From NCBI GenBank assembly GCA_025403435.1, contig CM046332.1, positions 5,821,903 through 5,885,902 of the forward strand: 64,000 bases of DNA, read 5' to 3'. Position numbers and translations under genes: made by a program. The stretch comes from Artocarpus heterophyllus. Taxonomy: Eukaryota; Streptophyta; Magnoliopsida; Rosales; Moraceae. The notes below the pieces were generated by a model. It did no database searches and was not told the DNA's origin. It worked only from the letters and a program-made list of their open reading frames with translations. The first letter of the stretch is position 1. Each line of letters starts with the position of its first letter. This document shows, piece by piece, positions 38,405 through 46,009 of the stretch.

Positions 38405-38515
38405 TGATGTGTCCCACATCGGTTAGAGAGGGTGGTCTTGGGTGTTATATATATGGGTTCACAATCCTCCCCTCATGAGCTAGCTTTTGGGGTGGAGTTA
38501 GGTGGGTTCATATCA
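38405..38515 (+). repeat. TRIM LTR at left end of J
   Basis: 111 bp, TGATGTGTCCCACATCGG to GGGTTCATATCA, with TATATATAT in the middle. It is the same length as, and nearly identical to, the LTRs of the complete TRIM at 52728-53067. Confidence 0.92.
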
Positions 38516-38517
38516 TA

Positions 38518-38529
38518 TGGTATCAGAGC
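38518..38529 (+). other. TRIM primer-binding site in J
   Basis: TGGTATCAGAGC, followed by C, so 13 bases match the initiator tRNA-Met 3' end. It lies two bases after the TRIM LTR. Confidence 0.88.
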
Positions 38530-38721
38530 CGAACCTCTGCTAGTCGGTGGGCCAATGTACAAAGGTTCCCTGCCGCTCGTGTGGGTTAACGACGGAGTTG
38601 GCACGAGGACGTGCAGTCTAAAGGGGTCGGGTCGATGGGAGCATGTACAAAGGTTCCCTGCCGCTCGTGTGGGTTAACGACGGAGTTGGCACGAGGACGT
38701 GCAGTCTAAAGGGGTCGGGAA
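38530..38721 (+). repeat. TRIM internal region with 88-bp tandem duplication
   Basis: The block from ATGTACAAAGGTTCCCTGCC to CTAAAGGGGTCGGG occurs twice with an 88-bp period (starts 38555 and 38643). The complete TRIM elsewhere has one copy. It ends with the purine-rich AAAGGGGTCGGGAA before the next LTR. Confidence 0.88.
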
Positions 38722-42265: not shown

Positions 42266-45200
42266 AGAGAAAGTGATAAAAAAATGAAGAGCGAAGAAAA
42301 ATCAAGAGTGGGAGTGCAGAGAAAGGGTTCGGCCTGTGAGAGAAAAAAAGGAGAGATGGCCGAGAAAAAGGAGAGCAAAGAGAGCAAGGGAGAGAAAATT
42401 GAGAGGGTTGAAAAAAAATTCACAATCAGTCAATGAGAGAAAAGTAGAGAGAAAAACAAACTTTTATGCAAGAAAGAGTGATGTGAGAAGAGCTTTGTTT
42501 TCTAATCAGCCGATGATTTTACTCATGTACAAGGAGGCGTTTTTAAACACTAACGATCTTGATTCCACCTTGCATAGTTCTGTTGTTTCTCTTTTGCAGG
42601 ATTATGAGGATATCTTTCTTGAGGAAACACCGCATGGTTTACCTCCAATCCGCGGGATTGAACATCAAATCGACTTCATACCTGGAGCTACAATCCCAAA
42701 CCGACCAGCCTATAGGAGTAATCCCGAGGAGACGAAGGAACTCCAACGGCAGGTAAATGAGTTGATGGAGAAGGGACACGTGAGAGAAAGCATGAGCCCG
42801 TGCGCCGTACCAGTTTTACTTGTGCCTAAGAAAGATGGGACTTGGAGGATGTGCGTTGATTGTCGAGCCATCAACAACATCACGGTAAAGTATCGACATC
42901 CCATTCCTCGCTTGGATGACATGTTACATGAATTGCATGGTGCTTGTGTGTTTTCTAAAATTGATCTAAAGAGTGGATATCATCAAATTCGCATGAAAGA
43001 GGGAGATGAGTGGAAAACGGCTTTCAAAACAAAACAAGGCTTGTATGAGTGGTTGGTAATGCCTTTCGGTTTAACCAATGCGCCTAGCACATTTATGCGT
43101 TTAATGAACCATGTTTTGCGAGCTTTTATTGGAAAATTTGTCGTTGTTTATTTTGATGATATCCTTATCTATAGCAGCAATTTGGATGAACATATTGAAC
43201 ATTTGAAACTTGTTTTAGATGTTTTGCGGAAGGAAAAGTTGTATGCTAACCTCAAGAAATGTACCTTTTGCACAGATAAGCTTGTGTTTCTTGGTTTTGT
43301 TGTTAGTGCTCAAGGTATACAGGTTGATGAAGAAAAGGTGCGAGCCATCCAGGAGTGGCCGAGTCCAACTAGTGTGGGAAATGTACGGAGTTTTCATGGA
43401 CTTGCTAGTTTCTACCGGCGGTTTGTGAAAGATTTCAGTACTATAGCCGCACCACTGACTGAAGTCATCAAGAAGAATGTTGGGTTTAGATGGGGAGAAG
43501 AGCAAGAAAAGGCATTTCAGCTACTCAAGGAGAAGTTGACAAATGCTCCATTGTTATCTTTACCTAATTTTTCCAAAACTTTTGAGATTGAATGTGATGC
43601 TTCAGGTGTTGGAATTGGTGCTGTTTTAATGCAGGAAGGGAGACCAATAGCATATTTCAGTGAGAAGCTGAACGGGGCAACTCTTAATTACCCAACTTAT
43701 GATAAAGAGATGTATGCGTTGGTTCGGGCATTAGAGACATGGCATCACTACCTATGGCCTAAGGAGTTCGTGATTCACACCGATCATGAGTCCCTGAAAC
43801 ACTTGGAGGGCCAGCACAAGCTGAACAAAAGGCATGCTCGTTGGGTAGAATTCATAGAGATGTTTCCGTATGTCATTCGCTACAAGCAAGGTAAGGAAAA
43901 GGTCGTTGCTGATGCACTTTCTCGCAGGTATGTCTTAATCTCAACTCTTAATGCTAAACTACTGGGTTTTGAGCACATTAAAGAGTTATGTGCTGATGAC
44001 CATGACTTTAGTACTGAGTATCAAGCTTGTGAGAGATTTGCTAGTGGTAAGTACTTTAGGCATGAGGGATACTTGTTTTGGGAGAATAAATTATGTGTGC
44101 CTAATTGTTCATTACGAGATTTGCTAGTTAGAGAATCCCATGGGGGAGGATTGATGGGACATTTTGGAGTAATGAAGACTTTAGCTATGTTGCAGGAACA
44201 CTTCTATTGGCCACATATGAAACGAGATGTTGAGAGGCTTTGTGGTAGATGTGTAACTTGTAGGCAGGCTAAATCAAGAGTGCAGCCCCATGGTTTATAC
44301 ACCCCTTTACCAATACCTGGTGAACCTTGGATTGATATTTTGATGGATTTTGTGTTAGGTTTGCCTAGGTCTAAACGGGGAAGAGACTCAATATTTGTGG
44401 TCGTGGATAGGTTTTCAAAGATGGCTCATTTTATTCCATGCCACAAGACAGATGATGCTTCCAATGTTGCTGATTTGTTCTTTAGGGAAATTGTGAGACT
44501 TCATGGTATGCCTAGGACAATTGTTTCTGATAGGGACACCAAGTTCTTAAGCTACTTTTGGAAGACTTTGTGGGCTCAGTTAGGGACTAAGCTATTGTTT
44601 TCAACTACTTGTCACCCTCAAACTGATGGTCAAACAGAAGTTGTGAATAGAACCTTGGCTACTTTGTTGAGGGCTGTCATTAAAAAGAACATCAAAACAT
44701 GGGAGGAGTGTTTACCACATGTTGTGTTTGCTTATAATCGATTTGTTCATTTTGCTACTCAATTTTCACCGTTTGAAATTGTTTATGGTTTTAATCCTTT
44801 AACTCCTTTGGATTTAATGCCATTACCTTTGTCTAAGCATGTGAATTTAGATGGATAAAGAAAAGCTGATCTTGTTAACCAGATACACGAGAAGGCAAGA
44901 CTCAACATCGAGCGAAGGACTAAACAATATGCTGAACAAGCCAACAAAGGGCGTCACAAGCTCGTCTTCGAGCCCGATGATTGGGTGTGGTTGCACTTAC
45001 GCAAGGAACGATTTCCAGAACAAAGGAAATCCAAGCTATTGCCTAGAGGGGACGGTCCTTTTCAAGTTCTCGAAAGGATCAATGATAATGCGTACAAGCT
45101 AGACTTGCCAGGTGAGTATGGTGTAAGGGCCTCCTTTAATGTTTCTGATCTAAGTCCTTTTGATGCAGGCGACGATTTGAGGACAAATCCTTCTCAAGAG

Positions 45201-45440
45201 GAGGGGAATGATGAGGACATCGTTAGCACAAGCAAGAGCACGTGGGAGACATATTCAGATCCAATTCAAGTTCCCATTGGTCCGATTACGAGAGCTCGTG
45301 CGAAGAAGTTTAAAGAAACGCTTATTGGGCTGATTCAAGCAACTTGGGCTCAAGCTATTGCATGGAGGCCCATTGAGGGAATTGCGTGCGACAACCAGAC
45401 CAGTAAATGCGTGATTCAAGCTATAGAAGGGATTGAGTAA
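42266..45440 (+). pseudogene. Element J linker, RT, RNase H, integrase and LTR-encoded tail
   Basis: After a homopolymer shift in the linker (GTTGAAAAAAAATTCAC near 42410-42420) a run of 840 codons is open to TAA 44856-44858 (AAA to TAA). It covers RT (YFDDILIYS near 43155), RNase H, the integrase zinc finger and core (VSDRDTKF, TDGQTEVVN). Reading continues beyond the stop through FEPDDWVWLHLRKERF to the LTR-encoded EGIE at 45440. From about 43570 to 44260 it is virtually identical to G pol (about 47290-47980), unlike the flanking regions. Confidence 0.9.
45196..45208 (+). other. Polypurine tract of element J
   Basis: AAGAGGAGGGGAA directly before the 3' LTR. Confidence 0.9.
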
Positions 45441-46009
45441 TTTCCATTTCAGTTACTTTCCCATTTTGAGGCGACACATGGTGAGAAGAATCAGCTTTTG
45501 ACCTTTTTAATGTCTAGTTTCCTTTATTTTCGTTTGTGTATTTCTATTATTGTAAAGTTTTTAAGCCATTAAGGACACTTACCTTATTTGCTTTAGATTA
45601 GGTGATTTGGTAATTGATTTGCCGAAATTCGATGGGGAATTAGGAGCTGAAAATTCGCATAGGAACCCCTATATATTGTAACGAATTTCATTCAATGGGA
45701 CACAAGTAATAACACATAATTTTGAGGTTTAATTCTCTTTAGTTCCTAAACGAACTATTCGAACTTATCGAAAATTTCCGTGGCGTTCATAGACTTATCA
45801 ATCAGTCCATCCATAGCTGATTGTGGCGTCCTCACATACCAAGACTTATCAATCGGTCTCTCCATAGCTGATTGTGGCGTCCTCACATACCAAGGTTCGT
45901 GCTTCTTGTTGGGCATCGGGTCGCGGTTCCATCCAAAACCGGTTAGAAAGTTGATCTTGGAAACCAACTTCGGTTAGGGTCGCATCAGTTCTTGGCGTGG
46001 TTCGTATCA
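45209..46009 (+). repeat. Element J 3' LTR (family 1)
   Basis: 801 bp, TGATGAGGACATC to GGTTCGTATCA, two 51-bp units (about 45793-45895). Followed by AAAAA and the linker of G. Confidence 0.94.

What the first reader, a model, noticed from the sequence alone, without database searches (positions are those of the whole stretch)
38405..46009. Chimeric TRIM-CRM retroelement inserted as one unit
Seen: one perfect 5-bp duplication (AAAAA, 38400-38404 and 46010-46014) brackets a block whose left terminus is a TRIM LTR and whose right terminus is a CRM LTR. The host site in other copies (GCGAAGAAAAATCAAGAG) matches removal of the block plus one AAAAA. Inside, TRIM and CRM pieces alternate at least four times, and the CRM pol fragment (38814-39880) carries private variants of J itself. 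Inference: the chimera arose by repeated template switching between co-packaged TRIM and CRM RNAs, then integrated with two unlike ends. Alternative: a normal CRM insertion whose 5' LTR was later replaced, but that would have to break exactly at the terminal TGATG. The AAAAA site is low complexity, which is a weakness.
Basis: partly seen in the sequence, partly recalled or inferred. Interest (0 to 1): 0.86.

Follow-up and report, generated by a model that had tools for sequence, protein, structure and literature searches.

The report
Mosaic retroelement with two unlike ends
A 7.6-kb stretch of plant DNA begins with the end of a tiny retroelement, stops with the end of a large centromere-type retroelement, and is bracketed by the same five bases; it was likely stitched together when a copying enzyme jumped between RNA templates, then inserted as one piece.

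Summary
Block 38405-46009 lies between two AAAAA repeats in another CRM-type copy (K). Seven uninterrupted copies of the site in the window carry AAAAA once. The block reads: complete TRIM LTR, PBS, two internal units, 92 of 111 bp of a second LTR, 1,067 bp of CRM pol, a third TRIM unit with a complete LTR, then a CRM from just past its PBS to a complete 3' LTR. That is four blocks and three TRIM/CRM joins, plus one TRIM/TRIM join.

Two new points favour reverse transcription. All three pieces that start in a leader start at the same place, 29-31 nt after an LTR end. And the TRIM LTR has the published CRM termini (TGATG...TATCA), so one integrase could plausibly use both ends.

Two points weigh against it. 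A 5-bp microhomology (TGATG) could make the left end by deletion after a nested TRIM insertion. And J is identical to its host copy K over 724 bp against about 4% difference elsewhere, so DNA-level gene conversion probably acts at this locus.

Best reading: a template-switching product integrated with unlike ends (0.55). It is a new variant of a known kind. Genome-wide checks and reads were not available.

The parts
38400..38404 (.). left copy of 5-bp duplication AAAAA in host CRM copy K
38405..38515 (+). complete TRIM LTR (LTR1), TGATG...TATCA
   Evidence: 1 of 111 differs from LTR3, 2 of 111 from the 5' LTR of the intact TRIM at 52728
38516..38631 (+). TRIM leader with PBS TGGTATCAGAGC (38518-38529) and internal unit u1, ending in the purine-rich GGGGTCGGG
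38632..38721 (+). second TRIM internal unit u2, starting at TCGATGGG (position 29 after an LTR end in TRIM coordinates)
38722..38813 (+). TRIM LTR cut at base 92 of 111 (LTR2p)
38814..39880 (+). CRM pol fragment, sense, equivalent to J 42553-43619; 4 differences in the 1066 bases compared, one more at 38815
39881..39971 (+). third TRIM internal unit u3, entering at the same TRIM coordinate as u2 (TCGATGGG from 39882; base 39881 fits either side)
39972..40082 (+). complete TRIM LTR (LTR3), TCATG...TATCA
40083..45208 (+). CRM body J from position 31 after the normal LTR end (own 5' LTR and PBS missing) through gag, protease (match below Pfam's cut-off), RT, RNase H, integrase; reading frames broken by stops
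45209..46009 (+). complete CRM 3' LTR, TGATGAGG...TTCGTATCA; integrase reading frame runs into it
46010..46014 (.). right copy of 5-bp duplication AAAAA
43542..44265 (+). tract of J identical to host copy K (47254-47977), probable gene conversion K to J
27718..49666 (+). host CRM copy K (duplication ACGAA), itself split by copy M (reverse strand) and by the block

Best explanation
The block 38405-46009 is a TRIM-CRM mosaic bracketed by one 5-bp duplication, and it likely arose in a virus-like particle where reverse transcriptase jumped in series between co-packaged CRM and TRIM templates before an integrase, presumably the CRM one, inserted it with a TRIM LTR at one end and a CRM LTR at the other. 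Shown: the order of pieces, the same sense orientation of all of them, the joins (each ambiguous by about one base), the duplication, and the CRM-type termini on both outer LTRs. Inferred: minus-strand synthesis began in the CRM 3' LTR, ran left through J, and left the template just past the PBS. It continued on TRIM LTR3 and u3, left that template at the equivalent post-PBS position, copied a J-like pol RNA piece, then landed within a TRIM LTR (possibly at an RNA 3' end). It left u2 at the same post-PBS position and landed at a polypurine end. A TRIM plus-strand strong-stop, transferred through the shared PBS core, would supply LTR1. Separately, J probably later took up 724 bp from its host copy K by gene conversion.
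For: One AAAAA duplication exactly at two complete, unlike LTR ends, in a site that is empty in 7 window copies. All pieces lie in the same orientation. All three pieces that start in a leader start at position 29 (u2, u3) or 31 (CRM) after an LTR end; the CRM figure is 31 in 4 of 5 leaders read and 32 in one. The TRIM LTR carries TGATG...TATCA, the termini described for most CRM elements (passages of PMC3059260); its last 12 bases match the LTR ending at 61462 exactly, and 10 or 11 of 13 match the four other CRM ends compared. The PBS core TGGTATCAGAGC of the TRIM is also in 4 of 6 CRM leaders read, altered in the other two. u2/LTR2p and u3/LTR3 differ at 5 of 183, too many for copies of one source made when the pol piece was copied (Poisson about 0.0007), so more than one TRIM template took part. 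Frequent recombination among new Onsen insertions, attributed to co-packaged transcripts, is reported (passages of PMC5668417), and duplication-flanked complexes are ascribed to template switching (whole text of PMC1950507).
Against: A deletion between TGATG motifs gives the same left end, with 5-bp microhomology. LTR3 ends exactly at its terminus, as a plain TRIM insertion into the CRM leader would. The J=K tract shows exchange, probably at the DNA level, in J, and its left edge (43542-43745) spans the end of the copied pol piece (43619). The landing sites are interpreted: the TRIM R region was not tested. Ordinary reverse transcription gives two like LTRs; the plus-strand transfer in trans is an added assumption. 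AAAAA is low complexity. The start-position argument was found after looking at the data. PMC4079200 itself offers illegitimate recombination in nested insertions as an alternative to template switching for CR recombinants. No second copy of any junction could be sought in the genome.
Confidence: 0.55

Rival explanations
1. DNA-level origin: an ordinary CRM J inserted in K with duplication AAAAA. A TRIM then inserted in its leader (duplication TTTGC). A deletion between the TGATG of the CRM 5' LTR and the TGATG of the TRIM removed the CRM LTR, PBS and the left TTTGC. Break repair copied 1,067 bp of J pol and a second TRIM template into the TRIM as filler.
For: 5-bp TGATG microhomology and an exact TRIM 3' terminus against TTTGC. 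Probable gene conversion between J and K. Joins ambiguous by only about one base, as in end joining. The pol piece matches J itself best among window copies.
Against: Needs an insertion, a deletion and a multi-step filler repair. The terminal pair is 1 of 257 deletion pairs with 5 or more bases of microhomology, 52 of which have more (another copy's LTR stood in for the lost one). It does not explain why u2, u3 and the CRM all start at position 29-31 after an LTR end, nor why all pieces are in sense orientation.
Confidence: 0.33
2. Assembly artefact: the assembler joined reads from different TRIM and CRM copies in a repeat-rich region.
For: Dense repeats, many of them 94-99% alike. An exactly identical 724-bp tract between J and K could reflect misassembly.
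Against: Exact LTR ends with a 5-bp duplication at an otherwise contiguous host site are not expected of a misjoin. The four other insertions whose duplications I read (K, M, a solo LTR, the intact TRIM) have clean 5-bp duplications.
Confidence: 0.1

Closest known systems
Template-switching complex LTR elements of Triticeae, rice and maize (Sabot and Schulman 2007, PMC1950507)
   Same: flanking 5-bp duplication, internal LTR, fusion of two parents attributed to abnormal template switching
   Different: there the outer LTRs are highly similar and both cores complete; here the outer LTRs belong to unlike families, one partner is a TRIM, and J lacks its 5' LTR and PBS
Recombinant centromeric retrotransposons of grasses (PMC4079200)
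   Same: CR elements recombining, possibly by template switching in co-packaged RNAs (illegitimate recombination in nests is its stated alternative)
   Different: those are CR x CR recombinants, many of which proliferated; here a non-coding TRIM supplies one end and only one copy is seen, in one window
Tandemly arrayed TRIMs (PMC4717578)
   Same: more than two LTRs and repeated internal units in one duplication-flanked array
   Different: u1 and u2 here are joined without an intervening LTR/PBS, and the array includes CRM pol and most of a CRM
RLG_Cereba / RLG_Quinta cross-mobilisation in einkorn centromeres (PMC11302176)
   Same: a centromeric Ty3/gypsy element with a CR domain reported to mobilise a non-autonomous partner
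   Different: Quinta is reported to have evolved from Cereba and is thought to supply GAG; the TRIM here is non-coding, and the likeness to CRM that I saw is at the LTR termini and PBS core

Membership tests
CRM clade (group A) retrotransposon, for J | LTRs beginning TGATG and ending T/CATCA | tested here: met
   definition from passages of PMC3059260
CRM clade (group A) retrotransposon, for J | coding region running into the 3' LTR | tested here: met
   frame 44859-45440 crosses the LTR start at 45209
CRM clade (group A) retrotransposon, for J | tRNA-Met PBS after the 5' LTR | tested here: not met
   PBS core present in 4 of 6 other leaders read, missing in J, which starts at position 31; J is filed as a damaged member, its intact kin meet this
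CRM clade (group A) retrotransposon, for J | gag, RT, RNase H and integrase of Ty3/gypsy type | tested here: met
   Pfam matches above cut-off for gag, RT, RNase H, integrase; protease and Ty3 capsid matches below it
CRM clade (group A) retrotransposon, for J | RT phylogeny in the CRM clade and a CR motif | not tested
   C-terminus resembles the motif from memory only; none of the 120 relatives listed carries a clade name
TRIM | short element with LTRs, PBS, PPT, no coding capacity, 5-bp duplication | tested here: met
   intact copy 52728-53067, 340 bp, LTRs 111 bp, duplication GAGAC; longest frame wholly inside it 60 aa, a longer one only runs out into the host element
Template-switching complex in the sense of PMC1950507 | one flanking target-site duplication | tested here: met
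Template-switching complex in the sense of PMC1950507 | outermost LTRs highly similar | tested here: not met
   TRIM LTR 111 bp against CRM LTR 801 bp; no match between them, likeness only at the termini
Template-switching complex in the sense of PMC1950507 | two complete core sequences | tested here: not met
   J lacks the start of its leader and the PBS; the pol piece is 1,067 bp

The most novel reading that the evidence does not exclude
The TRIM is a satellite of the CRM element. It carries CRM-type LTR termini, shares the PBS core, is packaged with CRM RNA, and CRM integrase can pair a TRIM end with a CRM end. The locus would then be a fossil of serial end-to-end template jumping and a plus-strand transfer in trans, and would name a Ty3/gypsy partner for a flowering-plant TRIM.
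Probability: 0.3. Interest if true: 0.75.

Novelty: new variant of a known kind. Interest (0 to 1): 0.55.

Why it matters
For 278 of 289 TRIM subfamilies no enzyme-encoding relative was found, and the larger relatives found in flowering plants were all copia-type (PMC4717578). A single insertion carrying one TRIM end and one CRM end would be physical evidence that the two shared a particle and an integrase. It would also show that two outer LTRs need not be alike, which insertion dating by LTR comparison assumes, and it gives a concrete route for a non-autonomous element to change its helper, as proposed in PMC9744471 (section 17).

Tried and rejected
Independent TRIM-pol insertion: rejected, because its two flanks differ (AAAAA left, TTTGC right). 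A single TRIM source for both TRIM halves: rejected on 5/183 differences. RNA splicing at the joins: considered by eye on the output, no donor seemed to fit; not computed. Dating J against M: J and M differ by 0.84% in the pol piece but about 3% in gag (BLAST identity 97.0% over 1,209 bases) and 1.4-1.9% in the LTR, so J looks mosaic and the shared J/fragment variants cannot be placed before or after insertion. TRIM LTR motif, exact matches only: 0 in viral contigs (35 nt) and 0 in genome contigs (26 nt), as expected of virus and prokaryote collections. Literature for a TRIM-CRM chimera or an unlike-LTR insertion: among the rows shown by searches (20 of 294 papers; 9 of 9; 15 of 179; 15 of 72; 4 of 4; 14 of 15; 15 of 35; 8 of 8) I saw none by title or start of abstract; this is no proof of absence.

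Full report
What is there. The window is a nest of CRM-type Ty3/gypsy copies. Copy K (5' LTR from 27718, 3' LTR ending 49666, duplication ACGAA, LTRs 27/753 different) is split by reverse-strand copy M (37273 to 29668, duplication ATCAT, LTRs 6/789 different) and by the block of the finding. The block lies between AAAAA at 38400-38404 and 46010-46014. The flanks joined with one AAAAA occur 7 times in the window with 0-2 mismatches in 40 bases, 3 of 7 exact. Among the 120 rows shown of 7878 pol relatives, those that name an organism are plants, for example Xanthoceras, Fagus and Acer.

Anatomy. LTR1 (38405-38515, TGATG...TATCA) is followed by the leader with the PBS core TGGTATCAGAGC, unit u1, unit u2, LTR2p (92 of 111 bp), 1,067 bp of sense CRM pol, unit u3, complete LTR3 (39972-40082), and CRM J from 40083 to its complete 3' LTR (45209-46009). 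An intact 340-bp TRIM of the same family at 52728-53067, with duplication GAGAC, gives the normal layout. There are three TRIM/CRM joins and one TRIM/TRIM join. Each is ambiguous by about one base.

Where pieces start. In TRIM coordinates u2 and u3 both start at position 29 after the LTR end, although they follow different sequences (u1, pol). J starts at position 31 after the CRM LTR end (31 in 4 of 5 leaders read, 32 in one). All three therefore start just downstream of the PBS. Read leftwards, as a minus strand is made, these are the points where synthesis left a template near its 5' leader. Random DNA breaks would not be expected to pick one TRIM coordinate twice and its CRM equivalent once. 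This argument was found after looking at the data and no test statistic was computed for it. It also depends on u2 not being an inherited tandem unit; TRIM arrays are common (PMC4717578 section 8), and whether this TRIM family has such a unit could not be checked.

Where the pol piece comes from. It differs from J by 4/1066, from M by 9, from K by 24, from the other four full-length copies by 29-106, and from three partial copies by 14/840, 17/589 and 15/405. It shares two variants with J alone (38881 and 39188, against 7 and 8 other copies). At 38880 it agrees with M and four others while J agrees with K and one other, and at 39401 it agrees with K and not with J. So it comes most likely from J or a close sibling.

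Compatible ends. Passages of PMC3059260 give TGATG and T/CATCA as the LTR ends of most CRM elements, a tRNA-Met PBS, and group A coding sequence running into the 3' LTR. J has the ends and the overlap, gag, RT, RNase H and integrase by Pfam, and broken frames. The TRIM has the same ends, and its PBS core is that of 4 of 6 CRM leaders read. That TRIM and CRM ends can be used by one integrase is inference.

Against. First, TGATG at both LTR starts allows a deletion to make the left end. A census over a stand-in region found 257 deletion pairs with at least 5 bp of microhomology, 52 of them with more; this is one of the 257. Second, J and K are identical over 43542-44265 (724 bp), where about 30 differences are expected from the rest (Poisson about 1e-13). 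J shares seven variants there with K alone. In that tract J also loses its likeness to M (26 differences in 600 bp, summed), so J is the likely receiver. The donor being the adjacent host copy suggests DNA gene conversion. If the tract were as old as the pol duplication, no difference at all would be expected with probability about 0.07, so an exchange during reverse transcription is not excluded. Its left edge lies within 43542-43745, which includes the end of the copied pol piece (43619). This may be coincidence or a trace of one repair event.

Verdict. Reverse transcription with serial template jumps, then integration with unlike ends, explains the duplication, both exact termini, the shared orientation and the shared start positions with one setting. 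The DNA route needs three or more events but each is ordinary. I put 0.55 on the first, 0.33 on the second, 0.10 on an assembly artefact.

Known context. Template-switching complexes flanked by one duplication (PMC1950507, whole text) have like outer LTRs and complete cores, so this locus is not filed there, though it works like one. Grass CR recombinants (PMC4079200, passages), Onsen recombination attributed to co-packaged RNAs (PMC5668417, passages), einkorn Cereba/Quinta (PMC11302176, passages) and Cassandra arrays (PMC7215508, passages) show that the component processes are known or proposed. Larger relatives of TRIMs in flowering plants were all copia-type in PMC4717578 (sections 8 and 18 and passages). 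A candidate partner of a small grass element was proposed from internal similarity and an 11-bp LTR motif (PMC3281118, passages). A CRM-TRIM link would therefore be new if confirmed, as far as these searches show.

Noticed in passing
43542-44265 and 47254-47977: J and its host copy K are identical over 724 bp against about 4% difference on either side, with 7 variants shared by these two alone: probable recent gene conversion, or an assembly effect.
   Followed up: partly
17553-14307 (reverse strand): CRM pol end and PPT, one LTR, then PBS leader and gag in the same orientation: looks like two tandem CRM elements sharing an LTR.
   Followed up: no
53291-54057: CRM LTR preceded by a pol end with a degenerate PPT and followed by a PBS leader into which another CRM abuts: a second possible shared-LTR arrangement.
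   Followed up: no
34204-35003: Solo CRM LTR with duplication TTTTG inside copy M.
   Followed up: partly
52728-53067: Intact 340-bp TRIM with duplication GAGAC inside another CRM copy.
   Followed up: yes
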